The position numbers were made by a program, and so were the translations under genes. Below the pieces are notes generated by a model. The model was not told the origin of the DNA. It did no database searches and saw only the letters and a list, made by a program, of their open reading frames with translations. A stretch of 26,379 bases of DNA from positions 1 through 26,379 of IMG/VR virus record IMGVR_UViG_3300049914_000054. One strand, 5' to 3'. Source of the DNA: a virus. Each line of letters opens with the position of its first letter. Position 1 is the stretch's first letter. This document shows, one piece after another, positions 631 through 10,616 of this stretch.

Positions 631-927
631 ATGGTAGATATCCGCGGTATCGACAAAGCGTTAGTGCTACAGGCGCTATGGGATGGTGCGAAAGAGTTCG
701 GCAGGGGGAAGGTTAAGCACCCGTCGTGTACTGAGATCGAGGCCCGGGGCGTGACGTCGAAGGCGTCGAACGTGGGTCACGCCTATCGGTATGTGCGGGG
801 TCGATCGATCCAGTGCGATCTGTCGGGGGATACACTTGACCCCACGAGATATGACTCGGAGAACGGCAAGGACGCTGCGCAGCGAGCGATCGATAAGATC
901 AAGGCCAAGACGTTGGGTCGTGTGTGA
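631..927 (+). CDS. small conserved phage protein of the packaging region
   Basis: This 98-residue protein has the pattern I recognise from small phage proteins of unknown function near packaging genes: an N-terminal 'DKALVLQALWDGAKEFGRG' block, then 'YVRGRSIQCDLSGD', then 'YDSENGKDAAQRAI'. Relatives read approximately RDNGxGAAxRAI at the last block. No enzyme motif is visible. The start is well supported: AGGAGG overlaps the stop codon of the upstream gene and lies 4 bases before the ATG. Its own stop overlaps the GTG start of the large terminase gene (GTGA), so the two are probably translationally coupled. The function is unknown; an accessory role in packaging is only inferred from position. 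Confidence 0.8.
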   Translation: MVDIRGIDKALVLQALWDGAKEFGRGKVKHPSCTEIEARGVTSKASNVGHAYRYVRGRSIQCDLSGDTLDPTRYDSENGKDAAQRAIDKIKAKTLGRV

Positions 928-2591
928 CCACAACCAAGGCTCAGGAGGTCGCGATACGGACGACGCCGGAGGCGCGCACATTTGCTCAAGCAATGGCAGA
1001 TGGCATAGCGTGCGAGCAGGCGGCGCGTAGTCGCATCCAATGGCCGTCGGAGTACTACCGTACAAGACCTATCGAGTTCGCGCATGATATCCTAGGCATT
1101 GAGCAGTTGTGGGAGGGGCAATTGCGCATGATCGATTTGTACACTCGATCGTGGCGAATCGCTATTCGCTCTGGGCATAAGGTCTCTAAATCGTATACGA
1201 TTGCAATTATAGCACTGCATTTTTACTGCTGTTATGACGAGGCTCGTGTCGTACTGACTAGCGCTACGTCACGTCAGGTAGACGCCATTCTGTGGCATGA
1301 GATTAGGCGGATGTACCAACGCTCTGGTGTGTGCTCTGCATGTCTTATCTCGGGGTATGCCGGTCCGCGTCCGTGCCCGCACTCGGCGATCATTACGGGG
1401 GATATGCACGAGCTAGCGCGCAGTGGTCTTAAGTCCGACGACTATCGAGAGATCGTTGGGTTCACGGCGCGCGAGGCGGAGGCGGTTGCGGGGATCTCGG
1501 GTAAGAATCTACTATACTGCATAGATGAGGCGAGCGGTGTTGGCGAGGACATCTTTGAAGCGATCGAGGGTAATCGCGCGGGTGGCGCGCGGATTATGCT
1601 GACCTCTAATCCGACACGCACCGAAGGGGAGCATTACGAGGCGTTCGCGTCTAAGGCCGAATTTTACGACACTCTGACGATATCGAGTGAGGATACACCG
1701 AACGCACAGACAGGACAGGATGTAATCCCCGGACTCGCGACGCGAGAGTGGATCGAGGAGAAGAAACGAGAGTGGGGCGTAGACTCGTCGTTGTATAGGG
1801 TACGTGTACTTGGTCAGCACGTCCTCGCCGAAGAGGGGAAGATATTTAGCCTCCACACAATCGCAGAAGCGGAGGTGCGGTGGGCGGATACGTGTGCGGA
1901 GGGTCGATTGTATATAGGTCTTGACCCCGCCGGCCCCGGAGATGAGGGGGATGAGACAGCAGCTGCTGTGCGTAGGGGATCAAAGATACTACTGATTGAG
2001 GCGGTGCGTGGATTAGATGAGGTGAGCATCATCGCGTGGACAGTCGCGTTGATACGCGAGTATGTCCAGTATCGGGAGATACCGATATTGGTAGTCGATC
2101 GTGAGGGACAGGTCGGCGCTAGGGTGTACGGTGCGCTACGTAGCTATTTAGATCAGCACCCTGACGCGTTCGAGCTCGTCGGTGTGCGATCTAGTGAGCG
2201 CCCGGTGGGTCCCGACGGGGATGTGTACGATCGCGTACGGGATGCGCTGTATGGTAATTTCGCGTCGTGGATTCGAGAGGGGGGCGCGATTCCGGAAGAT
2301 GCGAGGCTGGCGAAGGAACTACACGCACCCGAATGGCGATCAGCTATTGAGACACACAACCGCTTGAAGGCCACACCAAAGCGCGAGATCAAGAAATCGC
2401 TCGGTCGCTCCCCCGATCGCGGGGACGCATGTCTCCTGTGCGTTTGGACTGTCGCGGTCTCGGTCCCTCCGCCGGAGTCCCCTCCCCCCGAGCCGGGACG
2501 GGCGCGTGGCGGCGCGCTCGATCCATACAGCGGGGGTCGTGGCCGGGAACGCGCGTTCGACCCGTACGCGGGTCGTGGAGGTCGAGGATGA
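924..2591 (+). CDS. terL: terminase large subunit (packaging ATPase-nuclease)
   Basis: The ATP-driven motor that pumps DNA into the prohead and cuts it. ATPase domain: Walker A-like 'RSGHKVSKS' (82-90), Walker B 'LLYCIDEA' (196-203, D201/E202), coupling motif 'LTSNPTR' (226-232). RNase H-like nuclease domain: 'YIGLDPAGPGDEGDE' (330-344, D334), 'ILVVDREGQ' (388-396, D392) and the late 'SPDRGDA' (496-502). Length (555) is normal. Oddities: the Walker A has SKS where GKS/GKT is usual; a CxxC...CPH cysteine cluster (137-152) sits between Walker A and B; and the C-terminus (about 527-555) is a Gly/Arg-rich tail with two DPY(S/A)G-type units. The GTG start overlaps the upstream stop, and the stop overlaps the next ATG (ATGA). 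Confidence 0.96.
   Translation: MTTTKAQEVAIRTTPEARTFAQAMADGIACEQAARSRIQWPSEYYRTRPIEFAHDILGIEQLWEGQLRMIDLYTRSWRIAIRSGHKVSKSYTIAIIALHFYCCYDEARVVLTSATSRQVDAILWHEIRRMYQRSGVCSACLISGYAGPRPCPHSAIITGDMHELARSGLKSDDYREIVGFTAREAEAVAGISGKNLLYCIDEASGVGEDIFEAIEGNRAGGARIMLTSNPTRTEGEHYEAFASKAEFYDTLTISSEDTPNAQTGQDVIPGLATREWIEEKKREWGVDSSLYRVRVLGQHVLAEEGKIFSLHTIAEAEVRWADTCAEGRLYIGLDPAGPGDEGDETAAAVRRGSKILLIEAVRGLDEVSIIAWTVALIREYVQYREIPILVVDREGQVGARVYGALRSYLDQHPDAFELVGVRSSERPVGPDGDVYDRVRDALYGNFASWIREGGAIPEDARLAKELHAPEWRSAIETHNRLKATPKREIKKSLGRSPDRGDACLLCVWTVAVSVPPPESPPPEPGRARGGALDPYSGGRGRERAFDPYAGRGGRG
1332..1379 (+). other. putative zinc-knuckle insertion in the TerL ATPase domain
   Basis: Residues 137-152 of the large terminase contain C-x2-C-x10-C-x-H (C137, C140, C151, H153 approximately). 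The spacing suits a small metal-binding loop. This is pattern recognition only. Confidence 0.4.
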
Positions 2592-2849: not shown

Positions 2850-5396
2850 GTGGGAATCCGCGATCGTGCTGTAGCTGCACTCCAGGCGCTGTTGGGCATC
2901 TCGACGTATGAGCGCCCGCCCACCGCGTCTGGTCCGTCGCTTGATAGTCCAGCAGTAGAGGCGGTACGCGAAGCGCTGGGCGGTCAACTAGCCCCACCCC
3001 CGACGACGCAGACGCGTTGGTATATGGAAGATTTGGAGACTGCGGAGTATGCCGCAGATCGAGGGGATCTTTCGTGGGCTGCACGGATGATGAAATCGGC
3101 GAGGAAAGACGCCGTCTACGTCGGTCAGCTGGCGACGCTCTGTGGCGGCGTGGTCGCGCTCCCTCGAAAGTATCGCGGCGATGCGGAACTCGCTGCTGCG
3201 CTAGACATTGGTCACGAGAGCCCGACTGCCTCGGTGCGATCGCTGTTCGAGGAAATGGTCCCCCCCGCGGAGCTGGCGTTGCTGATTGCGGATGGGGTAG
3301 AGCTTGGAGTTGGGGTTGGCGAACTACTGCCCGTTAAAGGTCGGGATTACCCTGTCTTCGTGCGCCTCCCGCCCGAGTGGCTGATCCAGCGGTGGGCGGA
3401 GAATCGTTGGTATTACAAGTCAAATGCCGCACTGTTACCAATCACTCCAGGTGATGGTAGATGGGTACTACACGTCCCCGGTGGTAGGATACAGCCGTGG
3501 CAGGCGGGGAAGTGGCGCGCGATCGCGAAAGCGTATATTCGTAAAGATCACGCAGGGGAGAGGAAAGACGCGTGGGAAAGTAAGCTAGCGAATCCCGCGC
3601 GCGTGGCCGTATCTCCCGCTGGTGCGTCACAAGACCAGGCGCAGTCGTGGTGGCAGGCGGTGATGGCGTGGGGGATCAATTCGGTGTTCGGCACTCCACC
3701 GGGATACGACGTCAAACTAATCGAATCGAATGGTCGCGGTGCGGATGCATTCGACCGTACACAGGATCGATCCGATCGTGACTATATGATCGCTATCTCC
3801 GGTCAGGTAGGAACGACTGAGGGGGGCGCGGGATTCTCGAATAAGGACCTATTCGAGGCTGTACTCGCATACATCATTAACGAAGTCGCTGCATCTGTTG
3901 CGTATACGGTTAATACACAGATCATCCCCCCGTGGGTACTATCGCATTACGGTATCGAGCGATTGCAGGCGGGTGGCGTGGTGATGCAGTATAATACGCG
4001 TAAGCCGCGCGATAGTCATATCGTCGCAATGGCATCTCAAGCGGCTGCAGCAGCGACGATGGCGTGGCGTACGGAACTACCTTACCACGCGGTGCAAACG
4101 AGTGACGGATCGATTAAAGTACCCCAGCTGGACATTGCACAGATTTGTGCCGATGCGGGTATACCAATCCTCGGCGATCGCGATAGCGACGGAAAGCCAG
4201 AGCCTGACGCGGAACCTGCTCCTGTTCAGGCGACACTGCGCGTAGTGGCGAGTGCGGATCGTCCGCACCGATGCGATACCATCATTGACATCCTATCCGA
4301 TGACGGTGTCGAGAGACCCAGTCCGGGTGCGGCCCCTACAGCGTTTCGGATCTGGCATGCGGGCGAGAATCAGACGGATCACGGTCCAGTCGTCTTCAGT
4401 GAGCGGTCGGCTGCACTACTTATGCTAGCGCAAGGGTTGCGGGGAAATCTGTACTCATTCGACGTCGACCATATGTCGCTGTCGAAACAAGCCCCACCCG
4501 AGTCTCACGCGGCGGTTGGGTGGCACAGACTCGAAGTACGCGATGGGGATCTCTGGGCGGTAGCGGTCGATTGGGATGCGTCAATTCGCGCAGGGATCGA
4601 GCAGCAACCGCCGAAGTGGCGATACTTCTCCCCCGCGTACGATATAGACAAGACGACGAATGAGGCAATTGCGTATATTAATACAGCACTCACCATTAAT
4701 CCGGCGACGTGGCAGGTAACTGCACTAGCGGCGGTGGACGTAGAGGAGACGAGGACTATGAAAAAGTCGGAAATCATTGCGGCTATGGAACATATTGCGA
4801 GCGGCACTGGCGATGGCGCGTCTGCGGCCGCCGCGGTGCTCGCGATGATTAAGGCGGGGGAAGTCCCGAAGGACGATGGGGACAAGCCCGAAGCGGAGGA
4901 CAAGCCCGAAGCGGAGGACAAGCCCGAAGCGGAGGACAAGCCCAAAGAGACGACTGTGGTAGCTGCCGCAGTCGACGTCGTGGCGATTGCTCGCGATCTC
5001 CAGGCAGAGCGCGTCGCCGCGGCCGACGTGGAGACACGGACACGCATTTTGGCGTCGCGCCCGGATCTGACACCCGCGATGGTCAAGGCACTAGCCGTCG
5101 TCCCTGCGAGCGGTCTACAGGCGGTGGTCGATTCCTTTCCGCGGATCGCGACTCCCCCGTCAGGCGTAGTGACGGCGGCGGACGCACTCGCGGCTACGCG
5201 GGTGCAAGCGACGGTTGGATCGAATACAGTGCCGAGCGCGGAGAATCTACAACTACGGGAGCAGATGGGACTTAGTCGTAATCTCAGTCATGTGTTGACG
5301 TTCGATGAGGTTACGCAAAAGCACTCACTACACGCAATTTCGGCGAGTGATGCGAAGACGATTTTGGCGTCGCGTACGACGCAGAGGACGGTGTGA
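2850..5396 (+). CDS. portal - Mu gpI-like protease - scaffold fusion
   Basis: One uninterrupted 848-codon frame covers three head-assembly functions. Residues 1 to about 458 look like a Mu gp29/DUF935-type portal: 'MGIRDRAVAALQALLG' start, 'WAARMMKSARKDAVYVGQL' and a 'FSNKDLFEAVLAYIINEVA' region. About 470-630 matches the Mu I-protein protease family: 'FRIWHAGENQTDHGPVVF', 'FDVDHMSLSK' (H541), 'GWHRLEVRDGDLWAV', 'YFSPAYD' (S594) and 'INTALTINPATW'. About 637-848 is an acidic, Ala-rich helical segment with KPEAED repeats, as in phage scaffolds. In Mu, portal and protease are separate genes with gp30 and gpG between them; no gp30-like minor head gene is seen here. The GTG start has only a weak ribosome-binding site. 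The portal would have to be released by cleavage, or work with the protease attached. Confidence 0.9.
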   Translation: MGIRDRAVAALQALLGISTYERPPTASGPSLDSPAVEAVREALGGQLAPPPTTQTRWYMEDLETAEYAADRGDLSWAARMMKSARKDAVYVGQLATLCGGVVALPRKYRGDAELAAALDIGHESPTASVRSLFEEMVPPAELALLIADGVELGVGVGELLPVKGRDYPVFVRLPPEWLIQRWAENRWYYKSNAALLPITPGDGRWVLHVPGGRIQPWQAGKWRAIAKAYIRKDHAGERKDAWESKLANPARVAVSPAGASQDQAQSWWQAVMAWGINSVFGTPPGYDVKLIESNGRGADAFDRTQDRSDRDYMIAISGQVGTTEGGAGFSNKDLFEAVLAYIINEVAASVAYTVNTQIIPPWVLSHYGIERLQAGGVVMQYNTRKPRDSHIVAMASQAAAAATMAWRTELPYHAVQTSDGSIKVPQLDIAQICADAGIPILGDRDSDGKPEPDAEPAPVQATLRVVASADRPHRCDTIIDILSDDGVERPSPGAAPTAFRIWHAGENQTDHGPVVFSERSAALLMLAQGLRGNLYSFDVDHMSLSKQAPPESHAAVGWHRLEVRDGDLWAVAVDWDASIRAGIEQQPPKWRYFSPAYDIDKTTNEAIAYINTALTINPATWQVTALAAVDVEETRTMKKSEIIAAMEHIASGTGDGASAAAAVLAMIKAGEVPKDDGDKPEAEDKPEAEDKPEAEDKPKETTVVAAAVDVVAIARDLQAERVAAADVETRTRILASRPDLTPAMVKALAVVPASGLQAVVDSFPRIATPPSGVVTAADALAATRVQATVGSNTVPSAENLQLREQMGLSRNLSHVLTFDEVTQKHSLHAISASDAKTILASRTTQRTV
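4758..5396 (+). CDS. nested in-frame scaffold protein (internal start)
   Basis: An in-frame ATG (residue 637 of the fusion) has a strong purine-rich Shine-Dalgarno just upstream (GAGGAGACGAGG at 4743-4754). Translation from here gives a 212-residue acidic, helical protein starting 'MKKSEIIAAMEHIAS', containing the KPEAED repeats and no protease motifs. In Mu (I/Z) and lambda (C/Nu3), the scaffold is made from an in-frame internal start inside the protease gene. The arrangement and the RBS are seen; the scaffold role is inferred from this parallel and from the composition. Confidence 0.65.
   Translation: MKKSEIIAAMEHIASGTGDGASAAAAVLAMIKAGEVPKDDGDKPEAEDKPEAEDKPEAEDKPKETTVVAAAVDVVAIARDLQAERVAAADVETRTRILASRPDLTPAMVKALAVVPASGLQAVVDSFPRIATPPSGVVTAADALAATRVQATVGSNTVPSAENLQLREQMGLSRNLSHVLTFDEVTQKHSLHAISASDAKTILASRTTQRTV
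4881..4943 (+). repeat. 18-bp tandem repeat encoding KPEAED
   Basis: Three identical 18-bp units (GACAAGCCCGAAGCGGAG, 4881-4898, 4899-4916, 4917-4934) followed by a half unit encode DKPEAE repeats in the acidic scaffold segment. Loss or gain of a unit keeps the frame. Confidence 0.95.
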
Positions 5397-5397
5397 T

Positions 5398-6246
5398 ATG
5401 ACTCTCGCAGCGAATACGCATAGCATTTCCGCGTCGTGGAAAACACGACGTATGTGGCTTGCGCCAAACGTTACCCCCTATATCGATGGCGCTTGCGCGA
5501 TCGAGCTCACGGCGGGGGCGAATCAAGGACTGATTGTCCCCATGTCGGAGTCAACGACGCTGTTGTACATTGGTCACTTCAAGGAGCACTTCACCTCGAG
5601 CGCCAGCTCTGTGGAGTGTAACATCGATCTAATTACACCGATCGATCTGCAGTGGTATCTCAATACCGCGTCTCCAAACAATGTCGCATCGACCGATATC
5701 GGTCAGGTGTGCTATTTCGTTGACGCGAATCACGTGTCGATTACGTCTACGTCCCGATCGCTTGCGGGTCGGGTGTGGGCTGTTGATACGACTAAAGGCG
5801 TGCTCGTGCAGAAATTGTCGGGTAGTCAACTGACGGTGCAGACGGGGAATATCGCATCGAATCAAGTAGCGCACGGAACGGCGTATCAGATTCTTCGCAC
5901 GAATGCCGGCGCGACGGCATCTGAATGGGCAGCGGATCCGCTGAGCTATGGCACGATCGACGCGACGAATGATATCACAGTTGTTATCGCAGATGGGTTC
6001 ACACGACGAATCACGGCGTCGGGAGATGGGAAGAATATCACCGTTGGGACGACTGGTGCTCGCGCAGGGATGCAGATGACGATCATGCGCGCAGCCCTCG
6101 GCTCGACTACCGCTTGTAACGTTCTCAATGGCGGCGCCGGGACCGGGACGCTTATGGCGATGACGTCGAACAAGGCTGCGTCGTGCACCATCGCATTCGA
6201 CGGCACCAATTGGGCCCTCGCCTGCGGTACCTACCAAGCCGCGTAA
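5398..6246 (+). CDS. capsid decoration (cement) protein with C-terminal extension
   Basis: The 282-residue protein sits between the protease/scaffold and the major capsid gene, where Mu- and lambda-type phages keep head-stabilising proteins. Residues about 100-145 ('DIGQVCYFVDANHVS', then 'AGRVWAVDTTKGVLVQ') match the common phage decoration pattern DVGKxCYxxDxxTV...AGRVxxVDxxGVxV. The C-terminal part (about 180-282), starting near 'IDATNDITVVIADGFTRRIT', is beta-rich and Gly/Thr-rich and would add a second, probably surface-exposed domain. ATG 5398 is preferred over an upstream in-frame start at 5305 because it follows the fusion stop by one base and yields the family-like N-terminus. Its ribosome-binding site is not strong. 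Confidence 0.75.
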   Translation: MTLAANTHSISASWKTRRMWLAPNVTPYIDGACAIELTAGANQGLIVPMSESTTLLYIGHFKEHFTSSASSVECNIDLITPIDLQWYLNTASPNNVASTDIGQVCYFVDANHVSITSTSRSLAGRVWAVDTTKGVLVQKLSGSQLTVQTGNIASNQVAHGTAYQILRTNAGATASEWAADPLSYGTIDATNDITVVIADGFTRRITASGDGKNITVGTTGARAGMQMTIMRAALGSTTACNVLNGGAGTGTLMAMTSNKAASCTIAFDGTNWALACGTYQAA

Positions 6247-6256
6247 GGAGACTACA

Positions 6257-7342
6257 ATGCTGACGCCTAGTTGGTTTATGGATTTCGAGTCGAATATGCG
6301 GCTGATCGTAGAGAATACGTACGCGACACTCGCATCGACACTCTGGTGGTCAGACGTGGCGCGTGTGCTTCCCAGTAAGTCCAAGCGCGAGGTGATTGCG
6401 TGGTTGATCTCTACTGCTACGCTCGAGGATCAGGGAGACGGCGGGAATCAGGAGTACGATACGATCGAGGCGACGTACACTGAGATCGCTAACCGCAATG
6501 TCGGTAAGGGTCTCGAGATTGCACGTAATCAATTGGAGGACCTCGACGGAAATGGCATCCAAGCCGCGACACAGTGGTCGTCGGATATCGGGAGCGCATT
6601 TGCGTATTGGCCGCAAGAGCGGGTGTCGTATCTGATGAAGCATGGCGAAACCGCCGCGATCGCTACGGGGTATGACGCAAAGGCGTTGTTCGCCGTCGAC
6701 CACCCGGCGAATCCCGTGTTGTCGAATGGTGTGACGTTCGCCAACTTTTTCACCGGCGACGCGTACGGCGGAAGCGCGCCTCCGGCTGGGTGTGATGCGT
6801 ACTATCCTGGTGCGCTACCGATCCACGAATCGGTGACCGCGGATGTGGCGCTTGCGAATATGAGCAAGCTCGTGTCGTATATGGCGCGAGTTAAGCAACC
6901 GAACGGCCAGTATCCACGACGTCTACGGCCCGTAGGGTGGTTCGTACCGCCAGCACTCATGTCTCGGGGTACGCTGCTGACTGACGCAAGATTTATCGCG
7001 ATGTCTGCAGGCGCCGCGGCCGCACAGGGCGGATCGACGGACGTCCAGGGGATGATCGCGAAGCTGAATTTCGGCGCACCTGTCGTGTGTGACGAACTCG
7101 GTGCGTCATTCGACGGTGGATCGGACACGACTTACTACGTGGTATTCGCACCCTTGGGTGGCGCCCGGAGCACGCTAGGTGGTATTGTCTATCTAGAGCG
7201 CGAGGCATTTAGCGTCACGTACCACGGTCCGATGACATCGGCAGAGCTGGCTAGGCAGCGCAAATTCCAATGGCTGGCGGATGGTCGTAATGCGGTAGCT
7301 CCTGGACATCCCTACGAGATCGTCAAAGTCTGCGCGACATGA
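6257..7342 (+). CDS. major capsid protein, Mu gpT-like
   Basis: The 361-residue protein carries features of the Mu gpT-type major head subunit: N-terminal 'FMDFESNMRLIVENTY', a central 'LEIARNQLEDLDGNGI', then 'DAKALFAVDHPANP', which matches the family's LFxxDHPxNP signature, and a C-terminal half with 'GWFVPPALMSRGTLLTDARF'. It forms the icosahedral shell. AAGGAG lies 6 bases before the ATG and overlaps the upstream stop codon, one of the strongest ribosome-binding sites in the window, as expected for an abundant protein. Its stop overlaps the next start (ATGA). I see no obvious N-terminal delta domain; scaffolding is supplied by the upstream gene. Confidence 0.9.
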   Translation: MLTPSWFMDFESNMRLIVENTYATLASTLWWSDVARVLPSKSKREVIAWLISTATLEDQGDGGNQEYDTIEATYTEIANRNVGKGLEIARNQLEDLDGNGIQAATQWSSDIGSAFAYWPQERVSYLMKHGETAAIATGYDAKALFAVDHPANPVLSNGVTFANFFTGDAYGGSAPPAGCDAYYPGALPIHESVTADVALANMSKLVSYMARVKQPNGQYPRRLRPVGWFVPPALMSRGTLLTDARFIAMSAGAAAAQGGSTDVQGMIAKLNFGAPVVCDELGASFDGGSDTTYYVVFAPLGGARSTLGGIVYLEREAFSVTYHGPMTSAELARQRKFQWLADGRNAVAPGHPYEIVKVCAT

Positions 7343-8840: not shown

Positions 8841-10616
8841 ATGATTCCGTATGTACGTATTACCACAGTTGATGGTACGATGCCTGGCGTGCCCGCAGGC
8901 GCGAGTCTCTACGCGGTAGCGGGGCCGGCGATGGCTGGTACTGCGTCAGTCGCGTATGGTCCGTTTGCGCGTAAGGATGACGTCATTGCAGCACTCGGCG
9001 CTGGACCGCTCGTAGAGATGGCGTCGATGCTGACAGACGCTGGTCTTCCGGTGTTGTGCTTTCGTACGCCCACGTCGATTGAGGGTACGGCGGGTGAGCC
9101 GATTGGGGCTGTTGCAGGTACGTGCAGTGCTGTGACGCACCACGGCACAGGGGCGTCTGTTGGATCGATTCACACGAATCCTACGCCTAGTGCTGTCTTT
9201 TCAGTCGTTGTGCTGTTCCCCGTCGGCGGTACAATCGGTACAGAGGGTATCGTATATCAGACATCGCTCGACGGTGGTGCGACGTACACAGTCGCGGCCG
9301 CACTCGGCACTGCGGCGTATATCACAATCGCCGGCGCGGGTGGTGTGCGAATCGATTTCACGACCGCTACTATCGTGGCTATGGATTCGTACACATTTAC
9401 GACGACTGCGCCGATCGTGGCGTCTGACGGATCGCTAGTTGTAGATTTCGACGCGGGTAGTACGTGCGTACCTACGATCAACGGTAGTAGCGCGCCGTAT
9501 GACGATTTCGAATGTGGTATTCGATTTCAGACGGGTGGCAGTATCCACACTGCTGGGATCACGTATCAGACTACGCGGGACGGCGGTCGTAATTGGTCGT
9601 CGGAAGTCTATGCGTTGGGTACGGCGACATCGATTACACTAGCTGGCGTAATCGTAGATCTAGCTGACGGGTCAATTACTGCGGAGGATGAGCTCAGTTT
9701 TTGGACGACGGCTCCTGAGTCGTCGTCGGGAGATCTCGCCGCGACAACCACGGCGCTTGAGGCAACGGCGCAGCCCTGGGATGCGCTAGTCCTGGTGACA
9801 CCGGTCACGGCCGCGATCGGCGGTGCTCTGGATACGCTGGTAATCGCGCTCGAAGAAGATGGCGAGCCGCGTCGCTGGATCGCCCCGTTTCGGTTGCCGA
9901 CTTACGGCGAGACGCACTCGGATTATGTCGCTGCCGCGGCTGTGCTTAGTGCGTCGTATCGATCGCCGCTCGGGCGGGGGACAGTCGTAGCTGGCGCGGC
10001 GGAGGTCGTGTCCGCAGTGTCTCGATGCGTCTACCGCCGCTCTGCTATGTTCGCGGCGGTGGTGAAATGGTTGAGCGTGTCGGAAGAGGTCAATATCGCA
10101 CAGATTGATCCTCCGGGGGGACTGCTGACTGGTGCGTCGATTACATACGACAACGGCGACCCAAAGCACCATGACGAATGGGTGACACCAGGTTTGGACG
10201 ATCTGGGGTACATGGTTCTCCGGACGATGCCCCAGCAGGGGAAGCTGGTATTCGTAAATCGTCCGCTGGTATTCTCTCCAGCTAGTTCGGATTTCAAGAT
10301 CGAGCCGCACTGGCGTATCTATAAGCTAGCGCTTCGAACGATCTACGGGTACTTTTTACACCGTCTCAATCGCGGTGCGCACTTGTCGAAACGCACGGGG
10401 TATTTGCTTCCGAGTGCGGCGATCGAAATGGAATCTGGTGCGTATAGATCGTTGGAGGCTGTGCTCACCGGTAAGGCCTCTGACTGGACAGTCGTGCTAG
10501 ATCGGAATATCGATCTGCGTCCTGCGGGGTCTCGACTCACAGGGACCTGGGGCGTGCAATGTGACTATTATCCTGAGGGCATCGAGCTTACGGGCCGTCT
10601 CTCAGTACCAGTCTAA
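8841..10616 (+). CDS. contractile tail sheath protein with duplicated insert domain
   Basis: At 591 residues and followed by a tube gene, this is the sheath. The C-terminal half (about 310-591) has the sheath layout: 'PWDALVLVTPVTAAIGG', 'LSASYRSPLGRGTVVAG', 'DPPGGLLTGASITYDNGDPK', 'VFVNRPLVFSPASSDFK', and the final 'RLTGTWGVQCDYYPEGIEL', resembling DUF2586-type sheaths. Inserted near the N-terminus are two homologous domains (about 118-191 and 222-292), each with 'GIxYQTxxDGGxxx', 'ALGTAxxITxAG' and ending 'TTAP', so an internal duplication is likely; such inserts decorate the sheath exterior. GGAGGA sits 5 bases before the ATG, a strong site as expected for an abundant subunit. Confidence 0.82.
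   Translation: MIPYVRITTVDGTMPGVPAGASLYAVAGPAMAGTASVAYGPFARKDDVIAALGAGPLVEMASMLTDAGLPVLCFRTPTSIEGTAGEPIGAVAGTCSAVTHHGTGASVGSIHTNPTPSAVFSVVVLFPVGGTIGTEGIVYQTSLDGGATYTVAAALGTAAYITIAGAGGVRIDFTTATIVAMDSYTFTTTAPIVASDGSLVVDFDAGSTCVPTINGSSAPYDDFECGIRFQTGGSIHTAGITYQTTRDGGRNWSSEVYALGTATSITLAGVIVDLADGSITAEDELSFWTTAPESSSGDLAATTTALEATAQPWDALVLVTPVTAAIGGALDTLVIALEEDGEPRRWIAPFRLPTYGETHSDYVAAAAVLSASYRSPLGRGTVVAGAAEVVSAVSRCVYRRSAMFAAVVKWLSVSEEVNIAQIDPPGGLLTGASITYDNGDPKHHDEWVTPGLDDLGYMVLRTMPQQGKLVFVNRPLVFSPASSDFKIEPHWRIYKLALRTIYGYFLHRLNRGAHLSKRTGYLLPSAAIEMESGAYRSLEAVLTGKASDWTVVLDRNIDLRPAGSRLTGTWGVQCDYYPEGIELTGRLSVPV

What the first reader, a model, noticed from the sequence alone, without database searches (positions are those of the whole stretch)
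2850..5396. Portal, maturation protease and scaffold encoded as one polypeptide
A single uninterrupted frame of 848 codons starts as a Mu gp29-like portal, continues as a Mu I-like protease (FDVDHMSLSK, YFSPAYD, INTALTINPATW) and ends as an acidic scaffold. In Mu and lambda the portal is a separate gene, and Mu has gp30 and gpG in between. A fusion would deliver exactly one protease/scaffold copy per portal subunit, tying portal position to maturation and possibly requiring self-cleavage near residues 455-470 (a Pro/Glu/Asp-rich linker).
Basis: partly seen in the sequence, partly recalled or inferred. Interest (0 to 1): 0.75.

Follow-up and report, generated by a model that had tools for sequence, protein, structure and literature searches.

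The report
Phage portal fused to maturation protease
In this phage fragment (its relatives point to myxobacterial hosts), the ring through which DNA enters the head, the enzyme that matures the head and the head's internal scaffold are joined in one protein; the joining is real and turns up in a second, independent phage, but it is a rare and small change from neighbours in which the same genes sit side by side, and the scaffold can probably still be made on its own.

Summary
Confirmed: window 2850-5396 (+) is one 848-codon frame holding a Mu/JBD30-type portal (Pfam Portal_Mu, aa 81-402), a disordered linker (aa ~442-487), a Mu gpI-type protease with a herpesvirus-assemblin/T4-gp21-like fold (aa ~496-628; invariant Asp538, His541, Ser594) and a scaffold-like tail (aa 637-848). 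An assembly slip is unlikely: an independent contig (L031, ~50% identical) carries the same three-part fusion at the same junction. It is rare: in 114 unfused relatives the portal stop usually overlaps the next start (NTGA in 100), gp30 is not between them, and no other portal-protease fusion appeared in viral contigs, phage records or 379 Myxococcota genomes. The fusion amounts to loss of one stop-start overlap. Best mechanism (inferred): portal subunits carry protease-scaffold arms into the prohead, co-assemble with free scaffold, and are released by proteolysis, perhaps at VVAS (aa 465-468). New variant of a known kind (head-gene fusion).

The parts
2850..5396 (+). portal-protease-scaffold fusion gene (848 codons, GTG start)
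   Evidence: the GTG aligns with the start of relatives such as L007 and L010; no strong Shine-Dalgarno before it
3090..4055 (+). Mu-type portal domain (Pfam Portal_Mu, aa 81-402); portal homology to relatives runs on to aa ~457
4173..4310 (+). linker aa 442-487: former portal C-terminus and protease N-terminus; no predicted structure, very low pLDDT
   Evidence: junction aligned with L031, L023, L008
4242..4253 (+). VVAS (aa 465-468), candidate self-cleavage site, aligned with ICAS of L031 and IFAS of L023
   Evidence: enrichment in this region not beyond shuffles, so only a lead
4335..4733 (+). maturation protease domain, assemblin-like fold (aa 496-628)
4470..4472 (+). His541 (DVDH), invariant, candidate catalytic residue
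4629..4631 (+). Ser594 (FSP), invariant, candidate catalytic nucleophile
4744..4748 (+). AGGAG, Shine-Dalgarno of the nested scaffold start
4758..5396 (+). nested scaffold reading frame (ATG, 212 codons, same frame), like Mu gene Z within I
4880..4947 (+). 18-bp tandem repeat (3.8 copies), codes EDKPEA repeats in the scaffold hinge
924..2591 (+). terminase large subunit (context)
5399..6246 (+). virion structural protein after the fusion gene (context); the ATG at 5399 was read from the sequence
6257..7342 (+). Mu gpT-like major head protein (context)
8841..10616 (+). tail sheath (context: contractile tail)

Best explanation
A real, derived gene fusion in a Mu-like myovirus whose relatives occur in myxobacteria. 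In its relatives portal and protease-scaffold are neighbouring genes whose stop and start codons overlap by four bases; here that overlap is gone and the two frames run together. Two products are made: (1) the 848-aa portal-protease-scaffold protein, and (2) free scaffold from the nested start at 4758. The portal C-terminus points into the head, so a fused protease-scaffold arm would hang inside the prohead, where it can recruit free scaffold and head protein; after assembly the protease cuts the scaffold and probably itself off the portal in the flexible linker. Shown by computation: fusion, fold, conserved candidate catalytic residues, nested start, rarity, second instance. Inferred: that both products are made, the arm's position, cleavage.
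For: Single frame with both domains. Same fusion in the independent contig L031, 883-codon open frame, portal + Mu-I protease + tail. Protease model matches T4 gp21 Z 8.5 and herpesvirus assemblins; D538, H541, S594 invariant in 35 aligned proteases. Portal matches JBD30 and Mu portals. Linker from aa 454 of very low confidence, no structure. Unfused relatives: NTGA overlap in 100 of 114 (both fusion genes left out). Nested start with SD of 4+ bases in 32 of 34 Mu-I-type genes against 206 of 910 control zones. Relatives in genomes of Sorangium, Labilithrix and other Polyangiaceae. No second protease in the window.
Against: No expression, proteomic or structural data. Two cases only; reads were not available, so a sequencing slip in either contig cannot be fully excluded. 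L031's nested start has a weaker SD (AAGG). Portal and protease trees do not make the two fusions sisters, although neither rejects it (AU p 0.094 and 0.22). The record is a 26-kb fragment, so a second protease outside it is possible.
Confidence: 0.6

Rival explanations
1. Assembly or sequencing artefact: an indel joined two frames that are separate genes in the real phage.
For: Nearly all relatives have separate overlapping genes; no reads available; only two cases.
Against: L031, an independent contig about 50% identical, has the same fusion with a similar junction (ATLRVVASA / AATRICASA). The conserved EAA end of the portal and the SD-ATGA start signal of the unfused genes are absent from the linker in the frames read. 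Portal homology to aa 457 and protease homology from aa 478 lie in one frame.
Confidence: 0.06
2. Neutral fusion: the frames joined by chance in the lineage, the scaffold is still made from its nested start, translation was already coupled, and early self-cleavage makes the joined state irrelevant to assembly.
For: Overlapping, coupled genes are one small change from fusion. The fusion is rare and patchy, and the nearest portals (L026, L030, L035) are unfused with another protease class. Disordered linker.
Against: If of single origin, it persisted to about 50% identity with no stop or frameshift, which hints at tolerance or selection; single origin is not shown.
Confidence: 0.27
3. Stoichiometric device: each portal subunit brings exactly one protease and scaffold, with no free scaffold.
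For: No strong SD-bearing start for a free protease in the linker.
Against: Conserved nested scaffold start with SD right after the protease, also in the window (AGGAG, 9 bases before ATG 4758). Twelve scaffold copies would be far fewer than known proheads hold (own knowledge).
Confidence: 0.07

Closest known systems
Bacteriophage Mu head genes: gp29/H portal, gpI protease with nested gpZ scaffold, gpT
   Same: Portal_Mu, Mu-like_Pro and Mu-like_gpT families in the same order; scaffold nested in the protease frame
   Different: In Mu (own knowledge) the portal is a separate gene and gp30 and gpG lie between; here portal and protease are one protein and gp30 is not in this slot
Unfused relatives in IMG/VR and Myxococcota genomes (for example L023, L008, L124)
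   Same: about 45-55% identical portals, Mu-I-type protease, same nested scaffold start
   Different: two genes, usually overlapping by NTGA with an SD in the portal's end
Known head-gene fusions: portal-MuF (Arthrobacter cluster AK, PMC5513430; Microbacterium EA/EB, PMC7302621), MuF-protease (Microbacterium EG) and protease-scaffold-capsid (EE and others)
   Same: neighbouring head genes joined into one frame
   Different: none joins the portal to the protease; no paper found in the library describes that
Herpesvirus assemblin-scaffold (UL26/UL26.5 type) and T4 gp21
   Same: protease fold by model comparison; in herpesviruses (own knowledge) the protease lies upstream of a nested scaffold
   Different: no portal in the same polypeptide; sequence identity about 6-12%

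Membership tests
Mu-type portal (Pfam PF06074) | profile match over most of the model | tested here: met
   positions 4-321 of 336, E 1.7e-30, 106.9 bits against cut-off 23.9
Mu-type portal (Pfam PF06074) | portal fold | tested here: met
   best PDB matches JBD30 8rka_A and Mu 9khx/9knu; the sequence profile also finds 8rka and 9khx
Mu-type portal (Pfam PF06074) | dodecameric ring at one vertex | not testable with these tools
   needs cryo-EM
Mu gpI head maturation protease (PF10123, phrog_328) | profile match | tested here: met
   E 7.2e-12, 45.9 bits against 25.2; phrog_328 E 2.8e-13
Mu gpI head maturation protease (PF10123, phrog_328) | conserved candidate catalytic His and Ser | tested here: met
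   H541, S594 and D538 invariant in 35 rows; the catalytic role itself was not tested
Assemblin-like (herpesvirus S21 / T4 gp21) fold | similar fold of the catalytic domain | tested here: met
   T4 gp21 Z 8.5, VZV protease Z 8.0, then many herpesvirus proteases; unrelated rows at about 4
Assemblin-like (herpesvirus S21 / T4 gp21) fold | proteolytic activity and cleavage specificity | not testable with these tools
   needs biochemistry
Nested protease/scaffold gene (Mu I/Z, lambda C/Nu3 type) | in-frame internal start with ribosome-binding site after the protease | tested here: met
   ATG 4758, AGGAG at 4744-4748; 32 of 34 genes with SD of 4+ bases
Nested protease/scaffold gene (Mu I/Z, lambda C/Nu3 type) | separate scaffold protein is produced | not testable with these tools
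   needs expression or proteomics

The most novel reading that the evidence does not exclude
The fusion is functional: twelve portal subunits carry protease-scaffold arms into the prohead, so that the portal itself seeds the scaffold core and only portal-bearing proheads receive protease; portal incorporation and licensing of maturation are coupled in one molecule.
Probability: 0.3. Interest if true: 0.65.

Novelty: new variant of a known kind. Interest (0 to 1): 0.42.

Why it matters
How a prohead gets exactly one portal, and how the protease is confined to correctly started proheads, are open questions. A natural protein in which portal, assemblin-like protease and scaffold are one chain suggests that the portal's interior end tolerates such a load, and gives a test object for whether the portal seeds the scaffold. 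It adds portal-protease to the list of head-gene fusions.

Tried and rejected
Single-protein scan of viral contigs with the whole fusion found nothing; terminase, portal and protease scans worked. Protease scan of genome contigs found nothing. The full-length model has low confidence in the protease, whose alignment was two rows deep there; the separate domain model was used. Cleavage motif [VILFMC]xAS: not beyond shuffles before the protease (7 against mean 2.8, max 9), but above shuffles in the last 40 residues of Mu-I-type proteins (12 against mean 2.4, max 6) and not in S49-type tails (5 against 6.4); kept as a lead only, because the sequences are related. Ten long Portal_Mu frames in Myxococcota genomes were checked: three are portal-MuF fusions, one is portal plus 5'-3' exonuclease, the others have no second domain of another kind in Pfam; none is portal-protease. 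Paper searches for a portal-protease fusion gave none; the library holds open-licence papers only. NCBIfam: no match.

Full report
What is there. Window 2850-5396 (+) is one open frame of 848 codons from GTG to TGA. Pfam finds Portal_Mu at aa 81-402 (E 1.7e-30) and Mu-like_Pro at aa 516-723 (E 7.2e-12), both over their curated cut-offs; PHROGs agrees. The neighbours are a large terminase upstream and a structural protein, a Mu gpT-like head protein, connector-like genes, tail sheath and baseplate genes downstream, so this is the head region of a contractile-tailed, Mu-like phage. G000 is a 26-kb virus record.

Domain identity. A profile of portal relatives finds the solved portals 8rka and 9khx by sequence, and the full-length model matches the same portals best by fold (JBD30 and Mu). 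The protease part alone, folded with 31 relatives, has mean pLDDT 86; its best structural matches are T4 gp21 (Z 8.5, 125 residues, 3.7 A) and a long series of herpesvirus proteases (Z 8.0 downwards), standing above unrelated rows at about 4 (Foldseek). D538, H541 and S594 are invariant in 35 aligned proteases, including those of known phages; a His-Ser pair fits an assemblin-like serine protease, but the catalytic assignment is inferred. The linker (aa ~442-510) has no predicted structure and very low confidence.

Is it real. The terminase scan brought nine relatives and a portal scan 80 loci; a protease scan gave 30 loci and a broader one 40, largely the same contigs. In these, portal and protease are separate genes, with one exception: L031 (the same contig as L098 and L150), where one 883-codon open frame (872 aa from its first GTG) holds portal, Mu-I protease and tail. 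Window and L031 are about 50% identical over the whole chain and their junctions align (ATLRVVASA with AATRICASA). Two independent assemblies with the same fusion make an assembly slip unlikely, though reads were not available.

What it came from. Of 116 relatives with a portal frame end, 102 show NTGA at the end of the frame; two of these are the fusion genes themselves, where the site is the end of the whole gene, so 100 of 114 unfused portals overlap the next start by four bases. These portals typically end in EAA, which is where the next gene's Shine-Dalgarno sits. In the window this signal is absent; portal homology runs to aa ~457 and the start of the unfused protease of L008 falls at about aa 469 (alignment). 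No gp30 gene lies between portal and protease in these relatives (they abut or overlap), so the fusion removed nothing but the stop-start site. On the portal tree the window groups with L031 and three unfused S49-type relatives (97/92); on the protease tree it does not group with L031. Neither tree rejects the two fusions as one clade (AU p 0.094; 0.22). One or two origins are both possible.

The nested scaffold. Directly after the protease domain an in-frame ATG at 4758 follows AGGAG (4744-4748). In 34 Mu-I-type genes the best start in this zone has an SD match of four or more bases in 32, against 206 of 910 control zones of the same size elsewhere in the same genes (the sequences are related, so this is no exact probability). 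This is the arrangement of Mu I/Z and lambda C/Nu3 (own knowledge). It argues against one scaffold copy per portal. The fusion's own start has no strong SD, which would favour free scaffold over fusion (inference).

Mechanism. By established portal structure (own knowledge) the portal C-terminus lies on the inner side of the head. A protease-scaffold arm fused there would be inside the prohead. The likely course is: portal ring forms with arms; free scaffold and head protein assemble on it; the protease cuts scaffold and itself away. A site VVAS (aa 465-468) lies at the junction and resembles the (V/L/I)xA|S consensus of herpesvirus assemblins (own knowledge); ICAS and IFAS stand at the aligned place in L031 and L023, but the motif is not enriched there beyond shuffles. 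Cleavage is therefore a proposal. A neutral reading, in which fusion arose from coupled genes and self-cleavage hides it, is the main rival.

How rare. No record in the phage collection holds the fusion (six records matched, none over 80% of the query; gene layouts of four). In 379 Myxococcota genomes 43 have a Portal_Mu match and 34 a Mu-like_Pro match; of ten long portal frames checked, some are portal-MuF or other fusions, and by coordinates and frame lengths no match of the two families shares one frame. Papers found describe portal-MuF, MuF-protease and protease-scaffold-capsid fusions (PMC5513430, PMC7302621), none portal-protease.

Verdict. It is a rare new variant of a known kind of event.

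Noticed in passing
L006-L132, slot after the portal: The maturation protease changes class between close relatives (S49/SppA-type, phrog_53, in most; Mu-I/assemblin type in about 30) while portal and scaffold tail stay homologous; at least 6 changes on a 37-row portal tree.
   Followed up: partly
L140:1537-3885 (+): In a Myxococcota genome a Portal_Mu domain is fused to a complete 5'-3' exonuclease (both Pfam halves) in one 783-aa frame; portal frames of the same length occur again in that genome and in another.
   Followed up: partly
L137, L138, L139: Portal-MuF (Portal_Mu + Phage_Mu_F) fusions of 831-909 aa in three Myxococcota genomes.
   Followed up: partly
window 4880-4947: 18-bp tandem repeat (3.8 copies) in the scaffold hinge; L023 has a different repeat (EEKKEASEASD) at about the same place.
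   Followed up: no
last 40 aa of Mu-I-type proteins (window 5277-5393): A motif like ILAS near the scaffold C-terminus is enriched in Mu-I-type but not S49-type proteins, reminiscent of the maturation site of herpesvirus scaffolds.
   Followed up: partly
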